Source: Paracoccaceae bacterium
GTDB taxonomy: Bacteria > Pseudomonadota > Alphaproteobacteria > Rhodobacterales > Rhodobacteraceae
DNA: 37,789 nt
Assembly (NCBI GenBank): GCA_012270125.1
Contig: JAAXIY010000084.1
Location: 1-37,789, forward strand
Direction of reading: 5' to 3'
Part shown: positions 888 to 31,976 of the stretch, piece after piece
How the letters are laid out: the number at the start of each line of letters is the position of its first letter
Position numbering within the stretch: the first letter of the stretch is position 1
Position numbers and translations under genes: made by a program
Notes under the pieces: generated by a model
What the model was told of the DNA's origin: nothing
What the model saw: only the letters and a program-made list of their open reading frames with translations
The model's database searches: none

Positions 888-904
888 ATAGTAAGGATTT
901 TTGC

Positions 905-6632: not shown

Positions 6633-6661
6633 ATCTCTTTTTCCAACAGGCAAAGTTTTCT

Positions 6662-8535: not shown

Positions 8536-8536
8536 C

Positions 8537-9975: not shown

Positions 9976-9977
9976 TT

Positions 9978-10706: not shown

Positions 10707-10757
10707 TCGTGTCGTCCTTGCGATAGTATTTCTAACTCTAAACAATATATTTTATTT

Positions 10758-11522: not shown

Positions 11523-11523
11523 G

Positions 11524-13223: not shown

Positions 13224-13230
13224 GAAAAAA

Positions 13231-15412: not shown

Positions 15413-15421
15413 GAAATTAGC

Positions 15422-15889
15422 ATGTTTTTAGTTAAATCAGTTATTACGAGTCCTACTTCAAATGCTAAATTAAAGTGCTCTTTGAATTACTCAGATCGGT
15501 TTCTCCGTAGAAAAAGACTGCTTACGGATTGTGGAATAGATTTTTTGATAGATCTCGAAAAAGCAACAAATTTGAACCATGGTGACCAACTAGAATTAGA
15601 TGACGAAAATCTTGTGGAAATAATAGCCAAACCAGAATTGTTGGCTGCTATTACAGGGAGTAAAATGTTGGAATATGCTTGGCATATAGGAAACCGCCAC
15701 ACGCCAGCACAAGTTGAGCAGACCAGAATACTTATTCAGCATGATCACGTCATAGAACATATGATTGAACATTTAGGTGGAATTATAACGCATGTTACAG
15801 AACCTTTTACGCCACTTGGTGGTGCTTATGGCCATGGCAGAACACATTCACATGAACATGTAAAAAGTACCCATGCACATGCACACTGA
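15422..15889 (+). CDS. ureE: Urease accessory protein UreE, nickel metallochaperone
   Basis: Delivers nickel to the urease assembly complex. The 155-residue protein has the UreE N-terminal domain (with SDRFLRRKRLL) and the C-terminal metal-binding domain with WHIGNRHTPAQ. It ends in a histidine-rich tail, seven histidines in about the last 18 residues, which stores extra nickel. The last codons, which encode the HAHAH tail, also contain the start of ureF in another frame, a 17-base overlap. Confidence 0.94.
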   Translation: MFLVKSVITSPTSNAKLKCSLNYSDRFLRRKRLLTDCGIDFLIDLEKATNLNHGDQLELDDENLVEIIAKPELLAAITGSKMLEYAWHIGNRHTPAQVEQTRILIQHDHVIEHMIEHLGGIITHVTEPFTPLGGAYGHGRTHSHEHVKSTHAHAH

Positions 15890-16517
15890 TTTGAAATTTA
15901 TGACAGTAATGCAATGGATGTCTCCCGCATTTCCAATCGGTGCCTTTGCCTATTCCCATGGGCTGGAGTGGGCCATCGATAAAGGCCATGTAAGCAATGG
16001 TAAGAAATTGCAAAATTGGATTACAGATCTACTAGAGTATGGATCTTTAAGAACTGATGCTATCTTTATAAGTCTGATACTTCGAGGGTATGACGCTAAG
16101 AAAATGAATGAATTATCTATTGCGTTGTGCCCTGCTGGGGAGCGCCTATTGGAAACAAAGTTACAAGGCAGTGCATTTGCAAAGGTAATTGAGGATGTCT
16201 GGAAACAGGATATAGGTGAACTATCTCTACCAATAGCTGTCGCCCTGGCTGCAAAAAATCAGAGTATTGAGCAAGATCTTATTCTACCTGCTTATTTGCA
16301 CGCATTTTGTTCTAATCTTGTATCGGTTGCAATTCGCCTAATTCCCATTGGTCAAACCGAGGGTCAGCGTATAATGTTAGGGCTGTCTTCAAAAATTTCT
16401 GATCTTGTACAGAGTGCTTCTGAAAGTGAAATTGATGATTTAAACTCTGCTTGTTTTTTCTCAGATGTTTCAGCGATGGAACACGAACACCTTCAGCCAA
16501 GGGTTTTTAAAACATGA
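15873..16517 (+). CDS. ureF: Urease accessory protein UreF
   Basis: GTPase-regulating partner of UreG in urease maturation, 214 residues. The diagnostic segment [20 protein letters not shown] lies near the N terminus. Start codon is ambiguous: ATGs at 15873 and 15879 are both in frame. The second would give MHTDLKF, close to the usual UreF opening, and a third at 15900 would be too short. The 5' end is nested in the ureE histidine tail and the 3' end overlaps ureG by an ATGA. Confidence 0.93.
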
Positions 16518-17128
16518 ATAATCAAAAAAAGTCTGCGGTTCGTGTTGGTATTGGTGGGCCAGTTGGAGCAGGAAAAACATCGTTTACGGCTGCAATCGTC
16601 AAAGATTTAAAACAGAGATATTCAGTTGGTGTTATAACAAATGATATCTATACAAAGGAAGATGCAGAGGCCTTAATGCGGATGCAAATTCTTCCAGAAG
16701 AGCGTCTAATTGGAGTAGAAACTGGTGGTTGCCCTCACACAGCTATAAGAGAAGATGCTTCAATAAATCTTGCTGCAGTGGAAGAATTGCAGCGACGTCA
16801 TGATGACTTAGATCTAATTTTTATTGAAAGTGGTGGAGATAATTTATCAGCAACATTTTCCCCAGAATTAGCAGATGTAACAGTTTATATGATCGACGTG
16901 GCGATGGGCTCTGACATTCCAAGAAAACGAGGCCCAGCAATGATGAAATCGGATATCTTGCTTGTTAATAAAACGGATTTGGCGCCTTATGTCGATGTTG
17001 ATTTAAGCTCGATGGAAAGAGATCTAAAAGTGGCAAGAGAAGATAGACCCTACTTTTTGATACAAGCAAAAAACAGTATTAATATTGAACAAGTTTCGCA
17101 AGAGATAGTTAAATTAGCTGGGTTATAA
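16514..17128 (+). CDS. ureG: Urease accessory GTPase UreG
   Basis: GTP-dependent nickel-insertion protein, 204 residues. The P-loop [10 protein letters not shown] is at 14-23, the nickel-binding CPH motif at C73-P74-H75 in [15 protein letters not shown], then [10 protein letters not shown], and the guanine-specificity motif NKTD. It is last in the operon. No clear terminator hairpin is visible in the 46 bases before the convergent MGMT-like gene. Confidence 0.96.
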
Positions 17129-17613: not shown

Positions 17614-18660
17614 TTAACGCTTAGGTAATGGCATCCAGCTTGGAACTGACACATCAGCGTGAGCAAATTGTGGCATTTTTGCTGATAGGTCTTCCATATT
17701 CTTAATATCATTATCATTTAAGAATTTCTGAGTGATCAATGTTGGTGGCACGACAACATTACTCCCAGGGTTTTCACCAGCAAGCATCATGGCAAGTGAT
17801 CTTACTGACACTTCTCCAACAACTGCAGGATTAGTAGCAACTGTTGCTGCCCAAGCAGAATTAGGTTCGCGCATTGCTGATATGTCGGCAGTAGAAACGT
17901 CAGCTGAATAAATATCTATTTGATCTGTTAGCCCAGCTTCGTCCACTGCGATTTTTACGCCTTTGGCAAACTCGTCATATGGAGCAAACATAACAGTAAT
18001 ATCTGAGTTGGCTTGCAATACGGATCTTGCCTGGTTGGCGTTTGAGTTTGCAATTGGGTTATCAAGCGTACCAAATTGAGCAACTTCTTCTATGCCAGGG
18101 TTTGCAGCTTTTATGTCTTCCCATGCAGCATGCCTTCTGTCTAGTGGCGCAATACCAGGAACATAAACATAGCCAGCTTTCCAAGATGTTCCATTATCTT
18201 TGATAGCTTGTTCCAAAGCAAGCTTACCTAGTAAGTAGTCAGATTGTTCTATTTGAGGAATTGCTGCGTTCTCAACGTTCACATCAAATGCAACAACTTT
18301 AATTCCAGCATCTACAGCTCTTTGAGCCGCGTCTCGCATACTTTCAGTCAGTCCATGTTGAATTACGATTCCATCAACGCCAAGCGCTATGGCTTGGTCT
18401 ACCATATCAGATTGAAGGGCAGCATCTTGCCTGCTGTCGAAAACTCTCAAGTCCACTCCTAGAGCTGCTGCTTGTGTTTCTACACCTGACAGATATGCTT
18501 GAAAAAAGTCACCTGTTGAAAGGTATCTGACAAGAGCGATTTTTACATCACCTGGATTGTCAAATGGTGCAGGCATATCTCCTGCTAATGCAGAGGTGGT
18601 AAGGGTCACAGGTAATGCAACCATTCCCCCAATTAGTTTCAGTATTGATCTTCTTATCAT
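17614..18660 (-). CDS. Ribose-type ABC importer, periplasmic sugar-binding protein
   Basis: Periplasmic binding protein of the RbsB/type I sugar family, 348 residues. I use the ATG at 18660: GGGAGGA lies about six bases upstream, and it gives a clean signal peptide (MIRRSILKLIGGMVALPVTL, cleavage after ALA near residue 26). A longer frame to 18693 would overlap the permease gene. The mature protein opens VKIALVRYLSTGDFFQAYLSG and has the DQAIALGVDGIVIQHG and KVVAFDVNV segments of this family. Last gene of a three-gene operon divergent from the mtnK-mtnA-aldolase operon, which suggests a pentose-like ligand such as 5-deoxyribose or 5-methylthioribose (inference). Confidence 0.85.
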   Translation of the reverse strand: MIRRSILKLIGGMVALPVTLTTSALAGDMPAPFDNPGDVKIALVRYLSTGDFFQAYLSGVETQAAALGVDLRVFDSRQDAALQSDMVDQAIALGVDGIVIQHGLTESMRDAAQRAVDAGIKVVAFDVNVENAAIPQIEQSDYLLGKLALEQAIKDNGTSWKAGYVYVPGIAPLDRRHAAWEDIKAANPGIEEVAQFGTLDNPIANSNANQARSVLQANSDITVMFAPYDEFAKGVKIAVDEAGLTDQIDIYSADVSTADISAMREPNSAWAATVATNPAVVGEVSVRSLAMMLAGENPGSNVVVPPTLITQKFLNDNDIKNMEDLSAKMPQFAHADVSVPSWMPLPKR

Positions 18661-18689
18661 AGTCTTCCTCCCTTGTTTACTAAGCCAAG

Positions 18690-19712
18690 TCAATGGCCGC
18701 TTTTACGCCCACTGAAAGATAGGGCAAATGTAAAAATCAGCGCGATTACTAGCACTGCGCCTTTTACAAAATCTTGTGTATAATAGGGTGCATTCATCAT
18801 TGTGAGACCCTGCAAAAGAATACCCACAAACAGGGCACCTATCGCTGTTCCAAATGCGTTAGGTTTGGCTGCACCAAGAACAGCAAATCCAATTAGCGCC
18901 GCAGCTACTGAATCTAGTAATAGATTGTTTCCTGAAGCAATATCTCCCCTCCCCAAGCGAGCGGAAAGCAAAATACCACCGATGGATGCCATTACCCCAG
19001 ATATAACGTAAGCTAAAATTTTGTATCTATTCACATTAGCGCCAGCAAGTGCCGTCGCTGTTTCATTGGAACCAATGGCATACATCAATCTTCCGTGCCG
19101 TGTTAATTCTAAGAAAACCCATATTAAAATACCTACTAGAATGAAAATGATTACTGGTATCGGAATAAGTTTTTCTAAAAAGAAGTCTAGTCTATGTCTC
19201 CCAAGCCATAAAAAAGCTTGTGAGTATACTCCTTCAGCAGTGGACCCGTCTGGTAATTTCATGCCAGTAGAAATTGAGCGACCCTCTGTTGGAATGCGCT
19301 GAAGTCCTATTAATAGGAACATCATTCCCAGAGTTGCCAAAAGATCTGGCACTCTGGCTTTTACAATTAGTAATCCGTTGATGAAACCAACTGCAGCACC
19401 CATGATTAAACATGCAATAATTGCAGTGAAAGCTGACATCTCTAAGACAACCATAACATATGCCGATAGCATAAGTGCAGAAGTTGCAACTGATCCGATC
19501 GAAAGGTCAAAGCCATCGACAACTAAAGTTGCTGTGACACCTAGGGCCAAAATACCTGTTATAGAAACGGACTGAAAAATAAATACAGCCGATCGTGGTC
19601 CAGCAAAACCCTCGGCCGCTATGGAAAAGAAGATTAACAAACCTGCAAGTAAAATAAGGAAGCCATACTTTATAGCAAAACTTCGGAAATTCATTTTTTC
19701 ATTAGTAGCCAT
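18690..19712 (-). CDS. Ribose-type ABC importer, permease
   Basis: Inner-membrane permease of the RbsC family, 340 residues, mostly hydrophobic with about nine or ten spans. Family marks: VDGFDLSIGSVATSALMLSA in the first third, a loop with GSNETATALAGANVNRYKILAYVISG, then GGILLSARLG and LDSVAAALIGFAVLGAAKPN. It lies between the ATPase and binding-protein genes. Its ATG follows the ATPase stop after two bases, so translation is coupled. Confidence 0.86.
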   Translation of the reverse strand: MATNEKMNFRSFAIKYGFLILLAGLLIFFSIAAEGFAGPRSAVFIFQSVSITGILALGVTATLVVDGFDLSIGSVATSALMLSAYVMVVLEMSAFTAIIACLIMGAAVGFINGLLIVKARVPDLLATLGMMFLLIGLQRIPTEGRSISTGMKLPDGSTAEGVYSQAFLWLGRHRLDFFLEKLIPIPVIIFILVGILIWVFLELTRHGRLMYAIGSNETATALAGANVNRYKILAYVISGVMASIGGILLSARLGRGDIASGNNLLLDSVAAALIGFAVLGAAKPNAFGTAIGALFVGILLQGLTMMNAPYYTQDFVKGAVLVIALIFTFALSFSGRKSGH

Positions 19713-21277: not shown

Positions 21278-21296
21278 TTGTCAACACTATTGACAA
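21278..21296. promoter_or_regulatory. TTGTCAA-N5-TTGACAA inverted repeat, likely operator
   Basis: Perfect 7-base arms at 21278-21284 and 21290-21296 with spacer CACTA. It sits in the middle of the 127-bp gap between the divergent importer and mtnK operons. Each arm contains a TTGACA hexamer on one strand, so it may overlap -35 elements, but no good -10 is found at standard spacing. The SorC-family regulator encoded at 25778 is the obvious candidate to bind it. Confidence 0.6.
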
Positions 21297-21365: not shown

Positions 21366-22625
21366 ATGTCTCCGGATAAATACGAACCTCTTACAATCGA
21401 AACGCTTGCTGATAGATTGGGTTCTGTCGAGGCAATCTGTAAAATAGTTGGTGATGACACAAGTAAATGGAAAATAAATGAAGTAGGCGATGGAAATTTA
21501 AATCTAGTTTACACAGTCTCAAGTAACTCAGGAAATATAATCGTAAAGCAGGCTTTGCCTTATGTCAGGTTGGTAGGTGATAGCTGGCCATTACCCTTAA
21601 GTCGCTCGTTTTATGAGCATGAGGTTTTAGTAAGGCAAGCGAAGCGCGATCCTGGGAGTGTTCCGGAAATATATTATTTCAATAAAGAGCAAGCCATTAT
21701 AGCTATGGAAATGCTTTTGCCGCATGTCATCTTAAGAAAAAAATTAATAGCTGGAGACAAAATTGACGGGTTAGCGCAGAGGCTTGGAGAATTCTGTGCC
21801 CGTACTGCTTTTAGAGGTTCCGATTTGTCACTCCAAACAGCAGATAAAAAGAGTGATACGGCAATGTTTCAGGGAAACCTGGCTCTTATGGCGATCACTG
21901 AAAGTCTGGTATTCACGGATCCTTATTTTCAGGCGGAAATGAATCATCATACAGACGGATTGGATCCGGTTGTTAAGATACTTAGATCCGATGTTAAAAT
22001 GAAAAGTGAAGCGCAGAGGATGTTGATGAAGTTCACAGCTAATACTGAAACTTTATGTCATGGTGATTTACATTCAGGTTCAGTGATGTGCACTGATAAT
22101 GAAACAAAAGTTATAGACCCAGAATTTGGCTATTATGGTCCAATGGGCTTTGATATTGGGATGTTAATTTCCAATTATTTAATGGCATATTTCAGTCAGC
22201 CAGGGCACCGTAGTAGCGAAACATTGTTAGAATATCAAAATTGGATTCTGGAAGTTATTATAGAAACTTGTGCGGCATTTCAGAATGAATTCAAAAAACT
22301 ATGGAATTCTGAAAGAACAGGTATTTTGTTTCCTCGGTCAATGTTTGAAGATCAGGGTGATAGTTCAGAATTTGCACTCAACAACATGCTCGAACACATA
22401 TGGCAAGATGCTGTTGCCATATGCGGTATTGAAATGCACAGACGTGTCTTATCACTTGCCCATAATGCAGATTTTGAAGAAATTGATGACGCTAAGAAGA
22501 GATCCCAGCTTGAAGCTAGAAACTTAATGATGGGAAGAGATTTAATATTAAATAATAAGTCGATAAAAAATGCTAGTGAACTGACCGATCTGGCAAAAAA
22601 GTTCAATTCGGAGAATTACCTATGA
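21366..22625 (+). CDS. mtnK: S-methyl-5-thioribose kinase (or 5-deoxyribose kinase)
   Basis: Phosphorylates 5-methylthioribose, and in related systems 5-deoxyribose, at C1. The 419-residue protein has the MtnK signatures: GDGNLNLVY at 41-49, KQALPYVR at 61-68 with the nucleotide-binding lysine, the catalytic loop CHGDLHSGS at 231-239, and the metal-binding [15 protein letters not shown] at 251-265. The ribosome site AGGAGGAA lies before the ATG. It leads a four-gene operon, overlapping mtnA by an ATGA. Divergence from a sugar importer suggests that free sugar is imported and phosphorylated here. A phosphorylase gene at 28217 gives a second, kinase-free entry. Confidence 0.9.
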
Positions 22626-23719
22626 AGGTTCAAGGAACTCATTATCGGTCGATCTGGTATGATTACAAAGATTGTCAGGTAAAAATTATAGATCAAAGAT
22701 GGTTACCTCATGATTTTAGGATTGTTGCTCTAACAAACTTGAATGAATTTGCAGTGGCAATACGCGATATGTGGGTACGGGGTGCACCTCTTATAGGTGC
22801 AACTGCTGCTTATGGTGTAGCAATATCTTTAAGTGATGATGCTTCAGATTCGGGTCTAAAAAATACATATGATACTTTGATAGAGACTCGTCCAACAGCA
22901 ATCAATTTAAAGTGGGCTCTGGATAGGCTACTAGGTGCACTAACCCCAGTTTCAGAAGATGAGCGTCCTTTAAAGGCATTAGAGCTAGCTCATCAGGTCG
23001 CTGAAGAAGATGTTGGCATTAACAAAAAAATAGGTGAGCACGGATTAGAGATTGTCAAAAAAATAGCATCCAAAAAACCTGCTGGTGAACCTGTTAGGAT
23101 GTTAACACACTGCAATGCTGGATGGCCGGCTACTGTAGATTGGGGTACAGCTACTTCACCAATGTATCATGCACACGAAGCAGGCATTCCTATCCATGTT
23201 TGGGTCGATGAAACAAGGCCAAGAAATCAGGGCGCAATGACAGCCTGGGAGTTAGAGAGCCATGGTATTAGTAATACATACATTACAGATAATGCTGGTG
23301 GACATCTAATGCAGAAGGGTCTTGTTGATATGGTTATTGTAGGCACTGATAGAACCACTGCTCAAGGTGATGTCTGTAACAAAATTGGCACGTATCTTAA
23401 GGCTCTAGCAGCTCATGATAACGGCGTTCCTTTTTATGTAGCTTTGCCTTCACCCACAATAGATTGGACAATAAGTGATGGCGTAGCGGATATCCCAATT
23501 GAGGAGCGAGCGTCTCGTGAGGTCACTCATATTTTAGGACACCACGAAAAAAATAGCATTGAAGAAATAAGAGTTACCTCAGAGGGTGTTTCTGGAGGTA
23601 ACCCAGCGTTTGATGTCACCCCAAACAGACTAGTTACAGGATTGATAACTGAGAGGGGTGTTTCTGATGCATCCGAAAAAGCTTTAGCAAAAATGTTTCC
23701 AGATTTAGCAGGACTTTAA
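22622..23719 (+). CDS. mtnA: S-methyl-5-thioribose-1-phosphate isomerase
   Basis: Converts 5-methylthioribose-1-phosphate (or 5-deoxyribose-1-phosphate) to the ribulose-1-phosphate. The 365 residues show the [13 protein letters not shown] phosphate-site motif at 53-65, the catalytic cysteine C164 in LTHCNAGW and the catalytic aspartate D243 in [12 protein letters not shown]. These match C160 and D240 of the Bacillus enzyme; the initiation-factor eIF2B-like homologues lack this pair. It is translationally coupled to mtnK, and the aldolase-dehydrogenase gene follows after five bases. No mtnB, mtnC or mtnD for the classical salvage route is in the window. Confidence 0.93.
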
Positions 23720-23724
23720 ACAAT

Positions 23725-25758
23725 ATGATCAAAAATAATTATAATTCTAGTGAAGCTAAATCCTATATCGATCAAGCAGGCAAAGATCTTGCTGATCAAG
23801 AACTTGCTCTTCGGGTTTATACATCAAGAATAATTGGGCAAAATCCCGATCTTGTTATGCACGGTGGCGGTAACACATCTGTTAAAGTTGAACGAAAAGA
23901 TCTTTTTGGAAATACTAAACAAGTAATACATGTTAAAGGATCAGGCTGGGACTTAGATACGATACAAGCACCTGGCCTTCCTGGCCTGTGGTTGGACCCT
24001 CTGAGAGAGTTACGAAACCTAGATAAACTGTCTGATGAAGATATGGTAAATGTACAGAGAGCTAATTTGTTAGACAGCTCTGCGCCAAACCCTTCCGTTG
24101 AAACACTTTTGCATGCGTTTTTGCCTCATAAATTTGTTGATCATACCCATGCCACACCATTTCTAATTCTTGCGAATCTCCCAAACGCTGAAGAAGTTTG
24201 CAGAGAAATTTTTGGTTCGCGGTTAGGAATAGTACCATACATAATGCCTGGTTTCGCTCTAGCAAAAAAAGCTGCTGAAGTTTATGAAGAGGATCCCAGT
24301 GTAGAGGGCCTGATCTTACTAGGGCATGGTCATTTTGCTTTTGGCCAGACAGCTGAAAAAAGTTATAATCAGATAATATCGCACACACAAACTGTTGCAG
24401 ATTACTTAAATCTTGAAAATCCAACAGCTCTCAATGTGAAAGCCAGCCACTCATCTCATGGAGTTTTACCAGTTATAAGGGGTCTAATTGCAGAAATGAT
24501 TGGTCCTAATGCTGCTATGCCGATTATTGATGTAAGAAATGGTCCAGAAGAAATGAAGTTTCTAAAGAGAGATGATTTAGAAAGCTTGTCAGAACGAGGA
24601 ACAGCTTCACCAGACCATGTTATTAGGATCAAGGGCCGTCCTTTAGTTTTGCGCAAATCAGTCTGGGAACAGGGAAGGTCTGCTATAAAAGAAGCGCTAA
24701 AGGACTATGAAATTGAATATAAGGCGATGTTTGAAAGGCAGGCTCCTAAAGCGGCCCAACCCAAAACTATTCTTCCGCCTGATCCGAAAACAATATGGAT
24801 GGAGGGAGTAGGTCTTCTAGGCCTTGGTGCAAATTTTAAATCTGCAAGTATAGCGGGTGATCTTGTTGTACAAAATGCCCGCGTAAGGTCAGTTGGCGAG
24901 GATGCAGGTGGTTTTTATCCAATTGGTGAAAAAGATTTGTTTGACTGTGAATACTGGTCGTTGGAGCAAGCTAAATTGGGCAAAGGCAAAGCCCCACCGT
25001 TTCAAGGTAAAGTGGTAATGGTAACTGGAGGTTCAGGAACCATTGGATTTGAAACAGCGAAGGCTTTTTCTTCATTAGGTGCACAATGCTTCTTAGTTGA
25101 TATCAATCAAGAAAATTTGGATATTGCTACCGAAAAATTGGGACCAGGGCATTTTGGAAAAGCGCTCGACGTAACTGATCCAGATGCTGCATCAGAAGCA
25201 ATTAAAACTGTGATAGAGGCGTATGGGGGTCTTGATATACTTGTTTCAAACGCAGGATCAGCTCAATCAGGGGCGATGGTAGATATGCCAACTTCCTCGG
25301 TAAGAAAAGCTTTTGAGTTAAACTTTTTTTCTCATTATGAGTTTGCAAAAGAAGCAGCCAACTTGCTGAAGTTACAATCCAGAGGCGGTCAAATTTTGTT
25401 TAATATTTCGAAACAAGCCGTCAACCCAGGTAAAAATTTTGGTGCATACGGAATGCCAAAAGCAACCACATTTTTCTTGATGCGGCAGCTTGCGCTTGAG
25501 CTGGGAGCAGATGGTATCCGAGTTAATGGGGTAAACGCTGACAGAATAAGATCTGGCTTACTTACAGATAATTTTATAGCTGAACGTGCAACTGCAAGGG
25601 GCGTTTCGGAAGAAAGCTATATGGCTGGTAATTTACTAAATGCAGAAGTGAGAGCTAGCCACGTGGCACAAGCTTTTGTTGCACTCGCTCAATCTGAACG
25701 AACAACTGGACATGTCATGACAGTAGATGGCGGTAATGTGGAAGCTTCTTTACGTTAA
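23725..25758 (+). CDS. Class II aldolase fused to short-chain dehydrogenase
   Basis: A 677-residue two-domain enzyme. Residues about 20-340 form a class II (AraD/fuculose-type) aldolase, with MHGGGNTSVK at 45-54, zinc ligands H140 and H142 (DHTHATP) and the GHGHFAFG motif at 200-207. Residues about 428-677 are an SDR, with TGGSGTIG at 434-441, N509, S562, Y575 and K579 (YGMPK). The layout is that of the rhamnulose-1-phosphate aldolase/lactaldehyde dehydrogenase fusion. Here its partners are mtnK and mtnA, with no rhamnose kinase or isomerase. The likely substrate is therefore 5-deoxy- or 5-methylthio-ribulose-1-phosphate, split to DHAP plus an aldehyde that the dehydrogenase domain processes. 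Reaction inferred; domains certain. Confidence 0.85.
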   Translation: MIKNNYNSSEAKSYIDQAGKDLADQELALRVYTSRIIGQNPDLVMHGGGNTSVKVERKDLFGNTKQVIHVKGSGWDLDTIQAPGLPGLWLDPLRELRNLDKLSDEDMVNVQRANLLDSSAPNPSVETLLHAFLPHKFVDHTHATPFLILANLPNAEEVCREIFGSRLGIVPYIMPGFALAKKAAEVYEEDPSVEGLILLGHGHFAFGQTAEKSYNQIISHTQTVADYLNLENPTALNVKASHSSHGVLPVIRGLIAEMIGPNAAMPIIDVRNGPEEMKFLKRDDLESLSERGTASPDHVIRIKGRPLVLRKSVWEQGRSAIKEALKDYEIEYKAMFERQAPKAAQPKTILPPDPKTIWMEGVGLLGLGANFKSASIAGDLVVQNARVRSVGEDAGGFYPIGEKDLFDCEYWSLEQAKLGKGKAPPFQGKVVMVTGGSGTIGFETAKAFSSLGAQCFLVDINQENLDIATEKLGPGHFGKALDVTDPDAASEAIKTVIEAYGGLDILVSNAGSAQSGAMVDMPTSSVRKAFELNFFSHYEFAKEAANLLKLQSRGGQILFNISKQAVNPGKNFGAYGMPKATTFFLMRQLALELGADGIRVNGVNADRIRSGLLTDNFIAERATARGVSEESYMAGNLLNAEVRASHVAQAFVALAQSERTTGHVMTVDGGNVEASLR

Positions 25759-25777
25759 TCAGAAATGAAAAAAGCTT

Positions 25778-26767
25778 ATGCTGAGAAAGAGTAACACTGA
25801 AACTGAAGCCGGTCTTTCATACTCGACGAAAGATGAAAGTTATTTGGCTAATGTTGCTCTTTTATATTATCAGGAAGGTTTAAATCAGGGTCAGATAGCA
25901 GATCGTCTTGGTCTCTCTAGAGCGACTATAGTAAATTATTTAAAAGAAGGGCGAGATCGTGGCATCGTAGATATCAGGGTCAACGGTGAAAGCCTTCGGA
26001 GCTCCTCAATTGGTCAAGAATTGCGAAAAATGTTTGATCTTGAGGATGTTTACATAGCGAACAGTGGACCAAATTCTGATCCTTCATCCGCATTGCGGCA
26101 AACTGCTAGAGTGGCTGCTTTAGCTTTTTATAACATTATTGAGCCAGGTGACGTAATAGGTGTCGCTTGGGGTGAAACCATAAAGTCAGTTGGGGAAAAT
26201 TTACCGGACCGCAAAATTGATAGCACCTCAGTTTGTCAGATAATAGGATCAATGGAGTCAGACAGATTACTAAGTGCGGAAGATTGCGCAATTCAAATTG
26301 CTAACAGAATAGGTGCACAGTGTTATACTCTTCATTCGCCAGCAATTCTTTCAAGCAAGCCTTTAGCTCAAGATTTAAGACAAGAAGAAACGATTAAAGC
26401 GCAATTAAAAAGGTTAAAAAATCTCAGTGCTATAATAACATCTGTTGGTGACCTCTCAGATAGTACTCACATTCTCTCTTCAGGAATAATAAGCGAAAAA
26501 GATTTAGAAAAAATTAAAGATGAAGGGGGCGCTGGTTGGTTATGCAGCGGTTTTATTCAAGCAGATGGAAGTAAGCTACCTCATCAACTTCAAGAACGTA
26601 TGATAGCAATTCAGCTGGAAGATATTCTAAAAACCCCAAAAAGGATCTTAGTTGCTTCAGGATTAAAAAAAGACTTAGCTGTATTGGCGGCTTTAAAAGG
26701 GAAATTTGTCACGCATGCTATTCTTGATTACGAACTCGCAAAAGCAATATTGGAAAAAAGTAGATAA
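25778..26767 (+). CDS. SorC/DeoR-type sugar-binding transcriptional regulator
   Basis: A 329-residue SorC-family regulator. The N-terminal helix-turn-helix runs about residues 22-60, with YYQEGLNQGQIADRLGLSRATIVNYLKEGRDRGIV. The rest is a sugar-phosphate isomerase-like effector domain, with DVIGVAWGETIKSVGENL and late ILVASGLKKDLAVLAAL. Such regulators sense phosphorylated sugars made by the pathway they control, so 5-deoxyribose- or methylthioribose-phosphate is a plausible ligand. It is last in the mtnK operon, 19 bases after the fusion gene. The ribosome site is poor, fitting low expression. The inverted repeat at 21278-21296 is a candidate target. Confidence 0.82.
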   Translation: MLRKSNTETEAGLSYSTKDESYLANVALLYYQEGLNQGQIADRLGLSRATIVNYLKEGRDRGIVDIRVNGESLRSSSIGQELRKMFDLEDVYIANSGPNSDPSSALRQTARVAALAFYNIIEPGDVIGVAWGETIKSVGENLPDRKIDSTSVCQIIGSMESDRLLSAEDCAIQIANRIGAQCYTLHSPAILSSKPLAQDLRQEETIKAQLKRLKNLSAIITSVGDLSDSTHILSSGIISEKDLEKIKDEGGAGWLCSGFIQADGSKLPHQLQERMIAIQLEDILKTPKRILVASGLKKDLAVLAALKGKFVTHAILDYELAKAILEKSR

Positions 26768-26779
26768 TTATAGAACCTT

Positions 26780-26823
26780 CAAGGATCTGGATTTATACAA
26801 CAGTTTACTTAAATGGATCCTTG
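26780..26823. repeat. Inverted repeat between the regulator gene and the deaminase operon
   Basis: CAAGGATC at 26780-26787 and GATCCTTG at 26816-26823 are perfect 8-base arms separated by 28 bases. It begins 13 bases after the regulator stop and ends 64 bases before the deaminase ATG. It could be a long-looped hairpin or a pair of half-sites; there is no U-run typical of a terminator. Confidence 0.35.
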
Positions 26824-26887
26824 TTGGTGCTAGTGTTTGGGTCACTCACTGAGACAAGAGATTTGATAAGTATGAGAGAGTATCGCA

Positions 26888-28204
26888 ATGGATGATATTT
26901 TAATTAAAGACGCCTTAATCGTAACATGTGATCCAGCTCATGCCATTATTAAAAATGGCCTGATTACGGTCAGTGATGGAAGGATAACAGCACTAGAAAG
27001 CTCTGATACAGTTTCAGTCGATAGCTTTCGCGCAAAAAAAACGATCTCAGCAAATGGCAATATAGTAATGCCGGGTTTGATTAACATGCACTGTCATGCT
27101 GCTGATAGTTTATTTAGAGGGCTTGTGGAAAACCTGCCTCTTGAGGAGTGGTTAGGACGTGTTTGGATAGCTGAGAAAGCAATCCTCACCCCTGAAACTA
27201 CATACTTGGGTTCTATTTTAGGATTGGCAGAAAATCTTTTAAGTGGTGCAACTACTGTGATGGATATGTTTTGGTATCCAGAAGAAACAGCTAATGCTGC
27301 AAAAAAATTAGGTATGCGGATCTCTACCGGTGGGATCTTTTTTGATTTGCCAGGAATAGGTGGCCGGTGTCATGAAGATTATATTTCTGAGGCTCATCAG
27401 TTTTCTCAAAATCATGAGGCTGATGAAAACGTAATCCCTGCGATTCTGCCTCATGGTAGTTATACGGTTTCTCCAGAAAACCTGACTGATGCTAAGAGAA
27501 TTGCGGATGAGTATGGGATACTATTTTGCACCCACGCAGCAGAAACTAAAGCAGAACAAAATGATATTAAGGCAAGATATAATAATTCAGTCATAAGACA
27601 CTTGAATGAACATAAATTGTTGGGTGAAAATGTAGTACTGGCTCATTGTGTACATCTTGATGAAAAAGAGATTTCTCTTATAGCAAAAAGCAAGACAAAT
27701 GTTGTTCTTAACCCGATGTCAAATCTGAAGTTGGGGTCAGGTATTGCTCCAGTTAAAGAAATGAAAAGAGCGGGTATAAATCTGACAATTGGTACAGATG
27801 GGGCAATAAGTGGCAATGACTTAGATATGTGGCTGGCAATGCGGTTAACTTGTGGTTTAGCAAAAGGCCTCAATATGGAAGCTGACGCTCTAACTGCTGA
27901 GCAGGTGCTTCATATGGCAACTATTAATGGTGCGAAAGCATTAGGTAAATCTGAGTTAATTGGAAGTTTGGAAATAGGAAAATGTGCAGATATTATCATG
28001 GTTGATGTAAATAACTCTCATTCTATACCTCTATTTGATCCCATAACACATCTTGTATTTGGCGCAGGCCGATCTGACATAACAGATGTTTTTGTATCGG
28101 GGAAACATATTGTGAAAAATAAAAAAATCACTGGAATTGATATTGAAAAAATTTACGACGAGGTTCGTGAATTAGCGCCACAAATAAAAGCCAGCCTTGA
28201 ATAA
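26888..28204 (+). CDS. Amidohydrolase, probable 5'-methylthioadenosine/5'-deoxyadenosine deaminase
   Basis: TRZ/ATZ-family amidohydrolase, 438 residues. Metal and catalytic residues: H68 and H70 (NMHCHAAD), H216 and E219 (CTHAAET), H253 (LAHCVHLDE) and D304 (IGTDGAISGND). These match the MTA/S-adenosylhomocysteine deaminase group, which turns the adenine part into hypoxanthine. Its partner 13 bases downstream is a phosphorylase predicted to take 6-oxopurine, 5'-modified nucleosides, which supports a 5'-methylthioadenosine or 5'-deoxyadenosine substrate. It differs clearly from the 8-oxoguanine-type amidohydrolase at 2424. Family is firm; exact substrate is inferred. Confidence 0.78.
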   Translation: MDDILIKDALIVTCDPAHAIIKNGLITVSDGRITALESSDTVSVDSFRAKKTISANGNIVMPGLINMHCHAADSLFRGLVENLPLEEWLGRVWIAEKAILTPETTYLGSILGLAENLLSGATTVMDMFWYPEETANAAKKLGMRISTGGIFFDLPGIGGRCHEDYISEAHQFSQNHEADENVIPAILPHGSYTVSPENLTDAKRIADEYGILFCTHAAETKAEQNDIKARYNNSVIRHLNEHKLLGENVVLAHCVHLDEKEISLIAKSKTNVVLNPMSNLKLGSGIAPVKEMKRAGINLTIGTDGAISGNDLDMWLAMRLTCGLAKGLNMEADALTAEQVLHMATINGAKALGKSELIGSLEIGKCADIIMVDVNNSHSIPLFDPITHLVFGAGRSDITDVFVSGKHIVKNKKITGIDIEKIYDEVRELAPQIKASLE

Positions 28205-28216
28205 AAAAGTGGTTCC

Positions 28217-29047
28217 ATGGAAAATGATGTCATAAAAAAAATAAAATTTGCTTCTGCGTATATTAGTGAAAGAATAAATCATCAGCCTGAGTTTCTTTTA
28301 ATTTTAGGATCTGGTTTGGGTGATGTAATAGATGAAATCTCAAATGAAGTTGTAATCCCATATAAAGAAATACCAGGGTTTCCTGTCTCTACGGCACCAT
28401 CTCACGCAGGAAACTTAGTAGTAGGGTTCTTTGGCGGCCGGTGTGTAATGGTTATGCAGGGTCGGTTGCATCTATATGAGGGGTGGAAAGCCCATGAAAT
28501 AGGATTTCCAATAAGGGTTGCTAAAAGCTTAGGTGTAGGGAAGATGATCGTAACAAATGCTGCAGGTGCTTTGGACAAAAGTTTTGAGCCTGGAAGCATA
28601 ATGATGTTAACCGATCATATTAATTTCACTGGCCAAAATCCACTTATTGGTCCTCACAATGATGACTTAGGTTTGCGATTTCCTGATATGTCTGATGCTT
28701 ATGATAAAAAGGTACAGAAGATAGTCTCTAATTGTTTTGAAAACGCCGGTATCAAATTAAGCCAAGGAATTTACGCGGGAATAACTGGCCCTTCTTTGGA
28801 AACTTCAGCAGAACGGCGCTTTCTAAGCGCAAGTGGTGCGAATGCCGTTGGAATGTCTACGATAATGGAAGTAATTGCTGCCAAACAGGCTGGTTTTGAG
28901 GTTGTTGGCCTTTCAGCAATTACAAATAAGGCTGATGGGGGAGAAGATCAGCAACCTGATACGATTGAAGAGGTGTTAGAATATGCCAGTATTGCTGGAA
29001 AAAAAATTAAATCTATTTTGCCAGAACTTTTGAACACTTGGTATTGA
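28217..29047 (+). CDS. Trimeric purine nucleoside phosphorylase, 5'-modified inosine type
   Basis: Phosphorolytic enzyme of the trimeric PNP/MTAP family, 276 residues. Visible residues are the phosphate loop GSGLG at 31-35, H85 and Y87 (RLHLYEG), N114-A115-A116-G117, E195 (GPSLETSAE), M213 and N237 (ITNKAD). E195 and N237 correspond to human PNP E201 and N243 and select 6-oxopurines; MTA phosphorylase has aspartate at N237. The position of human H257, which holds the 5'-hydroxyl, is I250 in DTIEEVL, a hydrophobic residue like the MTAP valine. The enzyme should therefore prefer 5'-deoxy- or 5'-methylthio-inosine. It lies in an operon with the deaminase that would make those. Confidence 0.85.
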   Translation: MENDVIKKIKFASAYISERINHQPEFLLILGSGLGDVIDEISNEVVIPYKEIPGFPVSTAPSHAGNLVVGFFGGRCVMVMQGRLHLYEGWKAHEIGFPIRVAKSLGVGKMIVTNAAGALDKSFEPGSIMMLTDHINFTGQNPLIGPHNDDLGLRFPDMSDAYDKKVQKIVSNCFENAGIKLSQGIYAGITGPSLETSAERRFLSASGANAVGMSTIMEVIAAKQAGFEVVGLSAITNKADGGEDQQPDTIEEVLEYASIAGKKIKSILPELLNTWY

Positions 29048-29091: not shown

Positions 29092-29847
29092 TTGACTGAG
29101 CTGACGGGAAAGCGGGTTTTAATTACAGGATCAAAAGGTGGCATTGGGTTTGCCATCGCAAAAAAGTTTGCAGAGGCTGGAGCGGAATTAGTTCTTCATG
29201 CAAGAAACGAAAGCCCCGAGTTCATAGAAGCTAAAACTAAGTTATCAAAGCTTTCAATGGCAGATATCTCAGGAGTCTTTGGAGATTTTTCAAATCAAGA
29301 TGCATGCAAACAAATATTTGAAACACTTATGAAAGATCAGAAAACTGTTGATGTTTTGGTTAACAATGCTGCTACTCAAACCTTAAGCGCATTAACAGAT
29401 ATGAGTGGAACAAAAGTGAGGGAAATGCTGGAGATTAATCTGCAAGTCCCAATTTTGATGACACGATATTTTGCTGAACAGGCTCAAGGAGGAGGGTCCA
29501 TTGTTAATATCTGTTCTATAGAAGCTCTGACACCTGCGTTAAATCATAGCCATTATGCAGCTTCGAAAGCAGGTCTCATAAACTTTACAAAGGCCTCAGC
29601 GCTTGAGCTTGGCCCCAAGAAAATCCGTGTAAACTCAATTTGCCCAGGATTAATTGATCGGCAAAATTTAAAGCAAGACTGGCCGGACGGAGTAAAGAGC
29701 TGGTTAGGAGCTGTGCCTCTTGGTCGATTGGGTACCGGTGAAGATGTGGCTAATGCTGCTCTATTTTTGGCAGGAGATCATGCAAAATTTATTACTGGTG
29801 CCAATCTTACAGTAGATGGTGGCATGGACTGCGTTCCAAGCTGGTAA
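29092..29847 (+). CDS. Short-chain dehydrogenase/reductase
   Basis: Classical SDR of 251 residues. The cofactor motif TGSKGGIG is at about 12-19, NNAA in the middle, catalytic YAASK, and FITGANLTVDGGM at the end. It starts with TTG at 29092, eight bases after GGGAGA; no better ATG exists. It resembles gluconate-5-dehydrogenase-type sugar oxidoreductases. It is the third gene after the deaminase and phosphorylase and is followed by a cupin. Possible roles are oxidising a free deoxy-sugar or handling the aldehyde from the aldolase; neither can be decided from sequence. Confidence 0.75.
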   Translation: MTELTGKRVLITGSKGGIGFAIAKKFAEAGAELVLHARNESPEFIEAKTKLSKLSMADISGVFGDFSNQDACKQIFETLMKDQKTVDVLVNNAATQTLSALTDMSGTKVREMLEINLQVPILMTRYFAEQAQGGGSIVNICSIEALTPALNHSHYAASKAGLINFTKASALELGPKKIRVNSICPGLIDRQNLKQDWPDGVKSWLGAVPLGRLGTGEDVANAALFLAGDHAKFITGANLTVDGGMDCVPSW

Positions 29848-29872: not shown

Positions 29873-30241
29873 GTGAAGTTATCGAAAGATAAAATCAGTT
29901 CTCCCGAGTTTTGGACTGACGAAAGATGTTTTATCACAGAGTGTTTAAATAGTGATGAAGTTAAAGATTTTTCTTTGGCAATTGCCAGAGTTGAGCCTTC
30001 AGTTACGACACAACTACACTGTCTTAGGGATACAAAAGAAATCTATATTATTCGAAAAGGAAGTGGATTGGTCATGGTGGGCGAAGAAGAATTTGAGGTT
30101 TCAGTTGGGGATAGCGTTATAATTCCAGCCAATATTCCTCAAAGAATTACTAATCTAAGTGACACTGACGATTTGGAATTTTACTGTCACTGTTCCCCAA
30201 GATTTATGCCAGAGGTATATGAGAATTTAGAAAACAATTAG
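29873..30241 (+). CDS. Cupin-domain protein
   Basis: Single-domain cupin of 122 residues. Motif 1 is degraded: one histidine (LHCLRDTKEIYIIRKGSG), with E57-like and GEEEFEVSVGD features. Motif 2 is GDSVIIPANIPQRITN, lacking the usual histidine; a CHC occurs near the end. It starts with GTG at 29873 behind AAAGGAA. It may be a sugar-binding or non-catalytic cupin. Last gene of the deaminase operon, its stop lying four bases from the end of the convergent dehydratase gene. Confidence 0.65.
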   Translation: MKLSKDKISSPEFWTDERCFITECLNSDEVKDFSLAIARVEPSVTTQLHCLRDTKEIYIIRKGSGLVMVGEEEFEVSVGDSVIIPANIPQRITNLSDTDDLEFYCHCSPRFMPEVYENLENN

Positions 30242-30245: not shown

Positions 30246-31976
30246 TTAATTTATTTCTGGTTCTTTAACAGCGGATCCAAAGTCTGACTTTAGGAAGTCA
30301 AAATCACAACCCTTATCAGCTTGCTCAATATGCTTTGAATAAATGTAACCATAACCGCGTTCATAACGAGGTTCGGGTTCTTTCCATTTTTCTCGCCGAT
30401 TACTCAATTCATTTTCTGAAATATCAACATTGAGTTTTCGTTCAGGTATATCCACTTCTATGATGTCGCCATTTTTTATTAACGCCAACGGCCCACCAAT
30501 GTAGGCTTCTGGGGCAACATGAAGAATACACGCGCCATAAGACGTTCCAGACATTCTTGCATCAGATAATCTAATCATATCCCGGTGTCCCTGCTTAAGT
30601 AATGCTTTTGGCATAGGGATCATACCCCATTCTGGCATTCCTGGACCACCTTTTGGTCCGGCATTTCGTAAAACCAAAATATGATCAGCTGTTATAGGAT
30701 AGTTTTCATCATTTATTATTTCTTTCAATTCAGAATAACTGTTTGCAACAATGGCGGGGCCTCTATGTTTTTGAAACTTTGGATCCATTGCCGCTGGTTT
30801 TATGACGGCTCCATCAGGAGCAAGGTTTCCTTTTAAAACAGCTAAAGATCCCTCATGGTAAACTGGATTATCTAGGGTACGAATGACATCACTATTATAA
30901 TTTTTAGCTCCTTTGACACATTCGCCTAGTGTTTTTCCTGTAACTGTTTTGACACTTAGATCAAGTTTATCCCCCAGCTCAACCATCAAAGCTCGCAAAC
31001 CCCCTGCATAAAAGAAATCTTCCATCAAGTACTCTTTTCCTGATGGACGAATATTGGCGATCACGGGTGTAGTTCGGCCTATTTCATCGAGTTGATCCAA
31101 GGTTAGATTGACACCGGCACGACGTGCCATCGCAATCAAATGGATAATTGCATTGGTTGAACAACCTGTCGCCATGGCTACCGTTACTGCGTTTCTTGTG
31201 CTGGCTTCGTTTATGATTTTGTCAGGAGTTAAATCTTCCCAGACCATCTCAACAATTCGACGACCACAGTCAGTCGCCATACGTTTATGACTAGCATCGG
31301 GGGCTGGTATTGAAGATGACCCTGGTAAAGTTAGCCCCCAACCATCAGCAATACTCATCATAGTTGATGCCGTTCCCATTGTCATACATGTACCATAACT
31401 ACGGGCTATACCACCTTGCACGCCATACCACTGCTCTTTGGAAATATTGCCAGCTCTACGTTCGTCCCAGTATTTCCAAACATCAGTACCGGACCCTAGC
31501 TTTTCACCTGCATAGTTACCTCGCAACATTGCTCCTGCAGGCATGTAAATAAATGGTAGTCCCATACTGGTTGCGCCCATAATCAGTGCTGGTGTTGATT
31601 TATCACATCCACCCATCAAGACGGCTCCATCAATTGGGTGAGAGCGCAGTGTTTCTTCAACCTCGAAAGCTCCCATGTTTCGATACAGCATTGACGTTGG
31701 CTTTAGAAATTGTTCCGAAAAAGAATGAACAGGCATTTCAACAGGCATACCTCCGGCTTGGTAAATGCCCTTTTTAACAAATTCGGCTCGGTCTCTTAAA
31801 TGATGATGGCATGGTGATAAGTCTGACCAAGTATTAATAATGGCAATAATAGGTTTGCCTTCCCAATCTGCTTGATCGAGTCCCATTTGCATAGCACGAG
31901 ATCTATGACCCATGGATCTTAAGTCATCTGGTGCAAACCAACGGGCTGATCTTAAATCTTCTTTTTTCTTAACCAT
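30246..31976 (-). CDS. IlvD/Edd-family dehydratase, probable sugar-acid (arabonate-like) dehydratase
   Basis: Iron-sulfur dehydratase of 576 residues. The cluster cysteines C56 (SDLSPCHHHL), C124 (GGCDKSTPA) and C197 (GTCMTM) are present, with K126 and the catalytic serine region MSGTSYG. The length and the C56/C124/C197 spacing fit the [2Fe-2S] L-arabinonate/D-xylonate branch rather than the amino-acid enzyme IlvD. It would convert an aldonate to a 2-keto-3-deoxy aldonate. It is convergent with the cupin and divergent from the YczE gene. Neighbouring dehydrogenases and TIM-barrel isomerases make a sugar oxidation route plausible; the sugar is unknown. Confidence 0.82.
   Translation of the reverse strand: MVKKKEDLRSARWFAPDDLRSMGHRSRAMQMGLDQADWEGKPIIAIINTWSDLSPCHHHLRDRAEFVKKGIYQAGGMPVEMPVHSFSEQFLKPTSMLYRNMGAFEVEETLRSHPIDGAVLMGGCDKSTPALIMGATSMGLPFIYMPAGAMLRGNYAGEKLGSGTDVWKYWDERRAGNISKEQWYGVQGGIARSYGTCMTMGTASTMMSIADGWGLTLPGSSSIPAPDASHKRMATDCGRRIVEMVWEDLTPDKIINEASTRNAVTVAMATGCSTNAIIHLIAMARRAGVNLTLDQLDEIGRTTPVIANIRPSGKEYLMEDFFYAGGLRALMVELGDKLDLSVKTVTGKTLGECVKGAKNYNSDVIRTLDNPVYHEGSLAVLKGNLAPDGAVIKPAAMDPKFQKHRGPAIVANSYSELKEIINDENYPITADHILVLRNAGPKGGPGMPEWGMIPMPKALLKQGHRDMIRLSDARMSGTSYGACILHVAPEAYIGGPLALIKNGDIIEVDIPERKLNVDISENELSNRREKWKEPEPRYERGYGYIYSKHIEQADKGCDFDFLKSDFGSAVKEPEIN

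What the first reader, a model, noticed from the sequence alone, without database searches (positions are those of the whole stretch)
21366..29047. Variant DHAP shunt for 5'-deoxy/5'-methylthio nucleosides with deaminase-phosphorylase entry and a fused aldolase
One locus encodes MtnK, MtnA, a class II aldolase-SDR fusion, a SorC regulator, an MTA-deaminase-like amidohydrolase and a 6-oxopurine phosphorylase. No mtnBCD genes are present. Known DHAP shunts use MtnP or Pfs plus MtnK, then MtnA and a separate aldolase. Here the nucleoside would be deaminated first, cleaved to hypoxanthine and 5-deoxy/methylthio-ribose-1-phosphate, isomerised by MtnA and split by the fusion enzyme to DHAP and an aldehyde. 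The deaminase step is known from Pseudomonas MTA metabolism; I have not seen it joined to an aldolase shunt in one cluster. Would let a cell recover carbon and purine nitrogen from radical-SAM and polyamine by-products.
Basis: partly seen in the sequence, partly recalled or inferred. Interest (0 to 1): 0.82.

Follow-up and report, generated by a model that had tools for sequence, protein, structure and literature searches.

The report
Deaminase-first shunt for SAM by-products
A bacterium carries a gene set that appears to import and break down the 5'-modified nucleosides and sugars left over from S-adenosylmethionine, removing the amino group first and ending in ordinary carbon metabolites; every part has known relatives, but this combination looks like a new variant of a known pathway.

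Summary
The six genes are present at the stated coordinates. They belong to a larger set: a ribose-type importer whose binding protein best matches a solved protein titled 5-methylthioribose SBP (38% identity), plus an SDR and a cupin. There are two modules. Module A (importer, MtnK, MtnA, aldolase) occurs in many relatives. Module B (deaminase, phosphorylase, SDR, cupin) adjoins MtnA and the fusion in the window and in 8 of the 16 closest relatives, and lies apart in others. The phosphorylase is of PNP descent. It keeps Asn237 of the base site but has Ile250 where PNPs have His257. All 16 close relatives have Ile or Leu there; 77 of 93 other PNPs compared have His. The window genome has no MtnP, MtnN or MtnB over model cut-offs. 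A PnrA-type importer precedes the deaminase in four relatives. Best reading: a deaminase-first DHAP shunt, with MtnK serving imported free sugar. Corrections: no spermidine synthase was found, so polyamine-derived MTA is doubtful; the fused SDR domain probably oxidises the aldehyde. No activity has been shown.

The parts
17617..18693 (-). Substrate-binding protein of a ribose-type ABC importer; predicted ligand 5-methylthioribose / 5-deoxyribose
   Evidence: Best PDB match 4ry8, E 8.8e-67; Foldseek rank 1 is 4ry8, titled '5-methylthioribose transporter solute binding protein TLET_1677', 38% identity; 71-98% identical in 25 relatives aligned
18693..19712 (-). ABC permease (BPD_transp_2)
   Evidence: PF02653 133 bits
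19718..21238 (-). ABC ATPase (double)
   Evidence: PF00005 152 bits, two stretches
21280..21294 (.). Palindrome GTCAAN5TTGAC in the divergent ATPase/mtnK gap; candidate operator
   Evidence: Exact match in this gap in 25 of 39 clusters
21366..22625 (+). [quoted passage not shown]
   Evidence: TIGR01767 466 bits vs cut-off 275
22622..23719 (+). MtnA, aldose-1-phosphate isomerase
   Evidence: TIGR00512 404 bits vs cut-off 279; single PF01008 match in the genome
23725..25758 (+). Class II aldolase fused to an SDR dehydrogenase (PRK08324.1-6 subfamily)
   Evidence: NF006192 820 vs 639 bits; TIGR02632 (RhaD_aldol-ADH) 418 vs 567.75, not met
25778..26767 (+). SorC/DeoR-type sugar-binding regulator
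   Evidence: PF04198 185 bits; intact in only 2 of the 8 linked relatives
26888..28204 (+). MTA / 5'-deoxyadenosine deaminase-like amidohydrolase
   Evidence: Best PDB match 4f0r, E 9e-74, named MTA/SAH deaminase; histidine, glutamate and aspartate metal-site motifs aligned
28217..29047 (+). Trimeric-PNP-family phosphorylase with Asn237 (6-oxopurine) and Ile250 (position of human His257); predicted 5'-deoxy/5'-methylthio-inosine phosphorylase
   Evidence: NF006054 330 bits; residues from alignments to human PNP mutants and a 110-row alignment; AlphaFold2 model pLDDT 87, best Foldseek matches are PNPs
29092..29847 (+). SDR oxidoreductase of module B, function unknown
   Evidence: PF13561 195 bits; beside the phosphorylase in all 16 close relatives
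29873..30241 (+). Small cupin of module B, function unknown
   Evidence: PF07883 42.5 bits; in all 16 close relatives

Best explanation
The locus is a deaminase-first DHAP shunt with two entries that meet at the 5-substituted ribose 1-phosphate. Entry 1: the ABC importer brings in free 5-methylthioribose or 5-deoxyribose and MtnK phosphorylates it. Entry 2: the amidohydrolase deaminates 5'-methylthioadenosine or 5'-deoxyadenosine to the inosine form, and the Ile250 phosphorylase splits that to hypoxanthine and the sugar 1-phosphate, the job that MtnP does elsewhere. MtnA isomerises the sugar phosphate to the ribulose 1-phosphate, and the fusion cleaves it to DHAP plus acetaldehyde or methylthioacetaldehyde, which its SDR half oxidises in place. 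Hypoxanthine can enter purine breakdown, whose late genes and urease lie in the same window. The SorC protein may regulate the set here. Shown: gene content, conservation, residues, absence of alternatives over model cut-offs. Inferred: every substrate and reaction; the roles of the SDR and cupin are unknown.
For: (1) Module B (deaminase-PNP-SDR-cupin) is present in 16 of 16 close PNP relatives, next to MtnA and the fusion in 8. In 4 of the other 8, module A is intact elsewhere in the genome. (2) In L104 (= L194) MtnA-fusion-SorC-deaminase-PNP-SDR-cupin stand together with no MtnK beside them, so there the phosphorylase is the only local source of substrate for MtnA. (3) Phosphorylase: Asn237 kept, Ile at the human residue-257 position. 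Ile or Leu in all 17 of the clade; His in 77 of 93 other PNPs compared. Of 11 PNPs found in 10 further genomes of the window's family, 8 have His and the 3 that sit beside a module-B-type SDR have Ile, Leu, Val. The 13 MtnP rows printed have Val/Ile in that column but Asp in the base site. (4) The genome has three PF01048 proteins: this one, a DeoD PNP and AMP nucleosidase, so no MtnP or MtnN; no MtnB. (5) The importer's nearest solved relative is titled a methylthioribose SBP. (6) A PnrA/Bmp-type importer lies directly before the deaminase in L098, L099, L107 and L256 (the Bmp domain itself was tested in L107 and L256). (7) A stand-alone FucA-like aldolase occurs in 9 of 13 module-A clusters without the fusion. 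(8) AhcY and DeoD are present, so SAH recycling and ordinary nucleosides are served elsewhere.
Against: I know of no assay of an enzyme of this clade, and none was done here. Two larger genomes of the same family (G290, G011) have both MtnP and an unlinked module B, so module B does not simply replace MtnP; G087 has phosphorylase, SDR and cupin but no deaminase in the 20 kb read. MtnA was not found in 4 of 16 relatives (G680, G682, G683, G684; single-cell or metagenome assemblies, completeness not given). The deaminase misses the curated cut-offs of the named deaminase models (PRK07228 313 vs 522 bits; PRK15493 245 vs 779). The SDR and cupin, conserved with the pair, are not needed in the proposed route. 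SorC is missing or reduced to an N-terminal remnant in 6 of the 8 linked relatives. PMC4308819 (passages) says the 5'-OH to His257 bond was not persistent in its simulations, so Ile250 need not exclude inosine. On the PNP tree only 2 independent pairs test whether His loss goes with deaminase linkage, too few for significance.
Confidence: 0.74

Rival explanations
1. Two unrelated neighbours: module A is a methylthioribose/5-deoxyribose utilisation operon, and module B is a purine-nucleoside salvage or catabolism unit (ordinary adenosine-type nucleosides to hypoxanthine) placed beside the allantoate/urease genes.
For: Module A stands without B in the 28 other mtnK loci examined (none with deaminase or phosphorylase within the stretch read). 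The window's 5' part is purine-nitrogen catabolism: allantoinase PuuE, allantoicase, ureidoglycolate lyase, urease. B stands apart from A in 8 of 16 relatives and in G290 and G011, which also keep MtnP.
Against: The phosphorylase lacks His257 in all members of its clade. DeoD already serves ordinary nucleosides. The A-B linkage recurs in differing contexts, including L104 without MtnK. No other MTA-cleaving enzyme was found in the window genome over model cut-offs.
Confidence: 0.15
2. Module B is its own pathway: the SDR and cupin process the released sugar or sugar phosphate by an oxidative route, and the link to MtnA and the aldolase is secondary.
For: SDR and cupin accompany the pair in 16 of 16 relatives, including four genomes in which MtnA was not found. 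In L105 the block is followed by an aldo-keto reductase-like protein and a 2,4-didehydro-3-deoxy-L-rhamnonate hydrolase-like protein (440 bits, cut-off 500). Three further gene clusters (c4-c6, among them an aldo-keto reductase-like and a xylose-isomerase-like protein) are near the block both in the L104 and in the L105 type.
Against: Those four genomes are single-cell or metagenome assemblies of unknown completeness. Only the four block genes are shared by all three contexts compared (L104, L105 and L109 types); c4-c6 and the hydrolase are absent from the L109/L111 stretches.
Confidence: 0.2
3. The fusion is a RhaEW-type L-rhamnulose-1-phosphate aldolase/lactaldehyde dehydrogenase and the cluster is for a 6-deoxyhexose.
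For: Same domain order as RhaEW, which turns L-rhamnulose 1-phosphate into DHAP and L-lactate (PMC3870299, passages).
Against: TIGR02632 cut-off not met (418 vs 567.75) while NF006192 is met. PMC3870299 says RhaEW genes are always within rha loci; no rha isomerase or kinase appeared among the window proteins scanned (not every ORF, and the rest of the genome was not searched for them). A fusion of this family lies within the stretch read around MtnK in 14 of 28 mtnK loci and beside mtnK-mtnA on the Mariluticola plasmid.
Confidence: 0.04

Closest known systems
DHAP shunt of E. coli ATCC 25922 (Pfs, MtnK, MtnA, Ald2; PMC10986504 and PMC12632272, passages)
   Same: MtnK and MtnA followed by a class II aldolase giving DHAP; neighbouring transporter and DeoR-family regulator; use of 5'-deoxynucleosides and 5-deoxypentoses
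   Different: Entry there by Pfs hydrolysis without deamination; separate Ald2; here deaminase plus phosphorylase, ABC importer, fused aldolase-SDR, SorC-type regulator
DHAP shunts of Rhodospirillum rubrum and Rhodopseudomonas palustris (MtnP, MtnA, Ald2; PMC5893883, passages)
   Same: Phosphorylase entry to the sugar 1-phosphate, MtnA, aldolase
   Different: MtnP acts on MTA itself; the aldehyde is reduced to methylthioethanol; no deaminase or fusion in the passages read
5-deoxyribose salvage DrdK-DrdI-DrdA of Bacillus thuringiensis (PMC6079011, passages)
   Same: Kinase, isomerase, class II aldolase to DHAP plus acetaldehyde; some such clusters there include sugar transporter genes
   Different: No deaminase or PNP, separate aldolase
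Pseudomonas aeruginosa MTA deaminase plus methylthioinosine phosphorylase (described in PMC6302742, passages)
   Same: Deamination before phosphorolysis, hypoxanthine released
   Different: The S-methyl-5'-thioinosine phosphorylase model PRK09136 scores only 67 vs cut-off 223 here, so the phosphorylase is of another branch; not joined to an aldolase shunt as far as I found
Methanocaldococcus jannaschii deaminase, MtiP and MJ0454 route (PMC6302742, passages)
   Same: Deaminated 5'-deoxynucleoside, phosphorolysis, MtnA-type isomerase; an aldolase was proposed as next step
   Different: Archaeal, no cluster described in the passages read
RhaEW, fused L-rhamnulose-1-phosphate aldolase/L-lactaldehyde dehydrogenase (PMC3870299, passages)
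   Same: Class II aldolase fused to NAD-dependent dehydrogenase
   Different: Different subfamily by curated models and different gene neighbourhood

Membership tests
DHAP shunt (5'-deoxynucleoside / 5-deoxypentose to DHAP plus aldehyde) | MtnA-type isomerase | tested here: met
   TIGR00512 404 vs 279 bits
DHAP shunt (5'-deoxynucleoside / 5-deoxypentose to DHAP plus aldehyde) | Class II aldolase in the cluster in place of MtnB | tested here: met
   NF006192 over cut-off; only two PF00596 proteins in the genome, neither MtnB
DHAP shunt (5'-deoxynucleoside / 5-deoxypentose to DHAP plus aldehyde) | Known entry: Pfs plus MtnK, or MtnP | tested here: not met
   MtnK present but no MtnN or MtnP over cut-off; the deaminase-phosphorylase pair would be a third entry
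DHAP shunt (5'-deoxynucleoside / 5-deoxypentose to DHAP plus aldehyde) | Cleavage of 5-deoxyribulose- or 5-methylthioribulose 1-phosphate to DHAP | not testable with these tools
   Needs an enzyme assay
Trimeric purine nucleoside phosphorylase | Family model and fold | tested here: met
   NF006054 330 vs 218 bits; Foldseek TM about 0.9 to solved PNPs of this family
Trimeric purine nucleoside phosphorylase | His257 (human numbering), which can contact the 5'-OH | tested here: not met
   Ile250 aligned to that position; role of His257 from PMC4308819 (passages), which also reports that this H-bond is not persistent
S-methyl-5'-thioinosine phosphorylase model (PRK09136) and MtnP (TIGR01694) | Curated model cut-off | tested here: not met
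   67 vs 223 bits; 82 vs 275 bits
MTA/SAH or 5'-deoxyadenosine deaminase (amidohydrolase superfamily) | Metal-site motifs and nearest solved relative | tested here: met
   Nearest is 4f0r, named MTA/SAH deaminase; alignment to 4f0r and 4dzh keeps the H-x-H, H..E, H and D motifs (motifs as metal site recalled)
MTA/SAH or 5'-deoxyadenosine deaminase (amidohydrolase superfamily) | Curated cut-off of a named deaminase model | tested here: not met
   PRK07228 313 vs 522; PRK15493 245 vs 779 bits; also PRK09045 (TRZ/ATZ family) 399 vs 540
RhaEW (TIGR02632) | Curated model cut-off | tested here: not met
   418 vs 567.75 bits
5-methylthioribose importer SBP (4ry8 type) | Closest solved relative is titled a methylthioribose SBP | tested here: met
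   Sequence E 8.8e-67 and Foldseek rank 1, 38% identity
5-methylthioribose importer SBP (4ry8 type) | Same ligand-contact residues | not tested
   The contacts of 4ry8 were not at hand
Universal methionine salvage (MtnBCD) | MtnB dehydratase | tested here: not met
   No MtnB among PF00596 matches; MtnC and MtnD not searched

The most novel reading that the evidence does not exclude
A clade of trimeric PNPs in Rhodobacteraceae has turned into 5'-deoxy/5'-methylthioinosine phosphorylases by exchanging the 5'-OH-binding His for Ile or Leu, an origin separate from the Pseudomonas methylthioinosine phosphorylase family. With a partner deaminase, up to two importers and an aldolase-dehydrogenase fusion it forms a complete oxidative route from imported MTA, 5'-deoxyadenosine or methylthioribose to DHAP, acetate or methylthioacetate, hypoxanthine and ammonia, with the SDR and cupin adding a further, unknown step.
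Probability: 0.45. Interest if true: 0.72.

Novelty: new variant of a known kind. Interest (0 to 1): 0.6.

Why it matters
If true, it is a third way into the DHAP shunt besides Pfs plus MtnK and MtnP, with a phosphorylase of separate descent. It would give such bacteria, some of them from seawater by their record names, a route to use carbon and purine nitrogen of MTA, 5'-deoxyadenosine and methylthioribose from other organisms; MTA release by Prochlorococcus under phosphate limitation is reported in PMC11698098 (passages). It also supplies a residue marker (Ile/Leu250 with Asn237) for re-examining PNPs now called inosine/guanosine-specific.

Tried and rejected
Rejected: a plain RhaEW rhamnose locus (TIGR02632 cut-off not met). 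SAH as main substrate is less likely because AhcY is present. Polyamine-derived MTA as the endogenous source: no PF01564 match; AHL synthase only below the cut-off.

Weakened: a clean replacement of MtnP by module B. MtnP is over the cut-off in 23 of 27 mtnK-bearing genomes of the window's family and in 0 of 17 of the window's clade (Fisher p 9e-9, which ignores kinship; completeness of 16 of the 17 not given). But of 12 stretches that I then read from 10 of those 27 genomes, two showed module B in genomes that keep MtnP (G290, G011), and one (G087, no MtnP) showed PNP, SDR and cupin with no deaminase in 20 kb. The other 17 genomes of the 27 were not searched for module B. The 28th mtnK genome (G237, a divergent MtnK without importer, L064) was left out.

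Led nowhere: a shared operator before module B. The palindrome is in 25 of 39 ATPase/mtnK gaps, but exactly before an unlinked deaminase only in L109 and nowhere in L255-L257. No shared repeat of 9 to 12 bases was found between the window's two regulatory gaps. Independent-pair test on the PNP tree: 2 pairs only. L125 (MtnA beside a PNP): the aligned residue is ambiguous (Ile, Ser). PMC10130141: no ribose, nucleoside or methylthio term.
Full report
1. Observation. Curated models name MtnK, MtnA, an aldolase-SDR fusion and a PNP over their cut-offs; the SorC domain is clear by Pfam. The amidohydrolase is nearest to 4f0r, a solved protein named MTA/SAH deaminase, but stays under the cut-off of each of the 25 models printed. 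MtnK and MtnA overlap by four bases; the following gaps up to the cupin are 5, 19, 120, 12, 44 and 25 bases. The set is larger than reported: an importer diverges from mtnK, and an SDR and a cupin follow the phosphorylase.

2. Window genome. It has 2.16 Mb and is 96% complete. PF01048 gives three proteins: the cluster phosphorylase, a DeoD-type PNP and AMP nucleosidase. TIGR01694 (MtnP) and NF004079 (MtnN) have no match over the cut-off. PF00596 gives the fusion and a PRK07490-type protein, no MtnB. MtnA is single. AhcY is present. Radical SAM: seven matches over the cut-off, one under. Spermidine synthase: none. AHL synthase: one match under the cut-off.

3. Module A. In a draw of 292 genomes of the order, 29 have MtnK over the cut-off, the window's own among them. 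I read 14 to 20 kb around the 28 others. In one search (blastp, E 1e-15) the SBP was found in 26 of 28 and the fusion in 14 of 28; deaminase and phosphorylase in none. Of the 14 without the fusion, L064 is a lone divergent MtnK; of the other 13, 9 have a stand-alone FucA-like aldolase. The SBP's best solved match by sequence and by fold is 4ry8, titled 5-methylthioribose transporter solute binding protein (model pLDDT 87). SBPs over 60% identical are on 81 plasmid records; of these I read two: beside mtnK-mtnA on S. meliloti pSymB, no aldolase annotated in the stretch, and, with an annotated bifunctional aldolase/short-chain dehydrogenase, on a Mariluticola plasmid.

4. Module B. One scan of 84,980 species genomes with the phosphorylase gave 90 relatives, of which the best 80 were kept. 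The 16 closest (L097-L112, 60-81% identical) all have deaminase, phosphorylase, SDR and cupin; 8 of them also have MtnA and the fusion alongside. MtnA was sought in the 16 genomes: found in 12, not in G680, G682, G683, G684. In the four genomes with MtnA but unlinked module B, importer-MtnK-MtnA-fusion-SorC is intact elsewhere. L104 has MtnA, fusion, SorC and module B but no MtnK or importer alongside. A four-gene importer directly precedes the deaminase in L098, L099, L107 and L256; its SBP is of the Bmp/PnrA family in the two tested, L107 and L256. L099, read with its neighbour stretch L195, shows everything in one place: SBP, permease, ATPase, MtnK, MtnA, fusion, SorC, PnrA-type importer, deaminase, phosphorylase, SDR, cupin. 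SorC is intact in 2 of the 8 linked relatives (L099, L104); L097, L100 and L101 keep only a match to its first 40-52 residues, and L098, L102 and L103 none.

5. Phosphorylase. Alignment to human PNP entries places Ile250 at residue 257 (the three human entries shown are Trp, Phe and Asp mutants, as titles say) and Asn237 at the base-binding Asn. PMC4308819 (passages) names His257 and Asn243 as binding-site residues; it speaks of an H-bond between the ligand's 5'-OH and His257 but says it was not persistent in simulation. In 110 PNPs (window, 29 loci, 80) the column is His in 77; all 17 of the window's clade have Ile or Leu with Asn237. The other 16 without His: L119, L120, L121, L123, L125, L126, L127, L131, L134, L135, L137, L138, L148, L165, L071, L080. 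The clade is one side of a branch on a quick tree (SH-aLRT 97) and lies apart from the ordinary alphaproteobacterial PNPs. Of 23 MtnP aligned, the 13 printed have Val or Ile in this column with Asp in the base site. So the enzyme joins a PNP-type base site with an MTAP-like 5' site, as a 5'-modified inosine phosphorylase would need. This is inference from residues.

6. Against a simple story. MtnP: 23 of 27 module-A genomes versus 0 of 17 in the window's clade. But G290 and G011 keep MtnP and carry an unlinked module B (Ile, Leu), and G087 has phosphorylase (Val), SDR and cupin without MtnP and without a deaminase in 20 kb. Module B is therefore wider than the linked clade and not only a stand-in for MtnP; uptake and use of external nucleosides fits better. 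The constant SDR and cupin are unexplained.

7. Mechanism. Importer plus MtnK handle free methylthioribose/deoxyribose; deaminase plus phosphorylase handle nucleosides; both give the sugar 1-phosphate for MtnA. The fusion is then expected to work like RhaEW, in which NAD was needed and DHAP and lactate appeared (PMC3870299, passages); by analogy acetate or methylthioacetate. Hypoxanthine would go to purine catabolism; allantoinase, allantoicase, ureidoglycolate lyase and urease are in the window. Xanthine dehydrogenase was not searched for.

8. Literature. Passages of PMC10986504 give two known shunt entries, Pfs plus MtnK or MtnP; PMC12632272 (passages) describes the E. coli operon, its putative transporter and its repressor. 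PMC6302742 (passages) describes the Pseudomonas deaminase and phosphorylase and proposes an aldolase after the M. jannaschii deaminase/MtiP/isomerase steps. No row listed (20 of 43; 10 of 10; 10 of 10; 15 of 31; 3 of 3) is, by title or abstract start, on a deaminase-PNP-MtnA-aldolase cluster; this covers open-licence PMC papers only.

9. Verdict. New variant of a known pathway; confidence 0.74 in the general scheme, about 0.45 in the full set of specific claims.

Noticed in passing
window 21280-21294: Palindrome GTCAAN5TTGAC in the divergent ATPase/mtnK gap, exact in 25 of 39 module-A clusters including S. meliloti and Mariluticola plasmids: a candidate operator for a conserved regulon.
   Followed up: partly
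L097 6244-6363; L100 and L101 8536-8706: Only an N-terminal remnant of the SorC gene is left between fusion and deaminase: the regulator has decayed in these relatives while the enzymes stay.
   Followed up: partly
L121, L126, L127, L131, L135, L148, L165: PNP-family proteins, mostly Bacteroidota, with Asp in the base site and Ile/Leu/Val at the His257 column: candidate MTA phosphorylases of PNP descent.
   Followed up: no
L134, L137, L138: Clostridial PNPs with Gly at the His257 column next to a deaminase-like amidohydrolase (L138 scanned); a second deaminase-PNP pairing.
   Followed up: partly
L196 8812-11417: Gammaproteobacterium: phosphoribosyltransferase-MtnA beside a PNP without His at that place; no MtnP over the cut-off in that genome.
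   Followed up: partly
L242: Mariluticola plasmid: importer, mtnK-mtnA, RuBisCO-like and DXS-like genes, and the aldolase-SDR fusion together, suggesting two fates for methylthioribulose phosphate in one place. A class D beta-lactamase gene lies nearby.
   Followed up: no
window 3-17128: Allantoinase PuuE, allantoicase, ureidoglycolate lyase, an 8-oxoguanine deaminase, Urt/Liv-type ABC genes and urease genes: a purine-nitrogen region.
   Followed up: partly
L105 12060-13982: After module B: an aldo-keto reductase-like and a 2,4-didehydro-3-deoxy-L-rhamnonate hydrolase-like protein, both under cut-off, a possible oxidative sugar route.
   Followed up: no
window 30246-31976: L-arabinonate dehydratase-type protein (PRK13016 over cut-off), end to end with the cupin and kept in five of the close relatives.
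   Followed up: no
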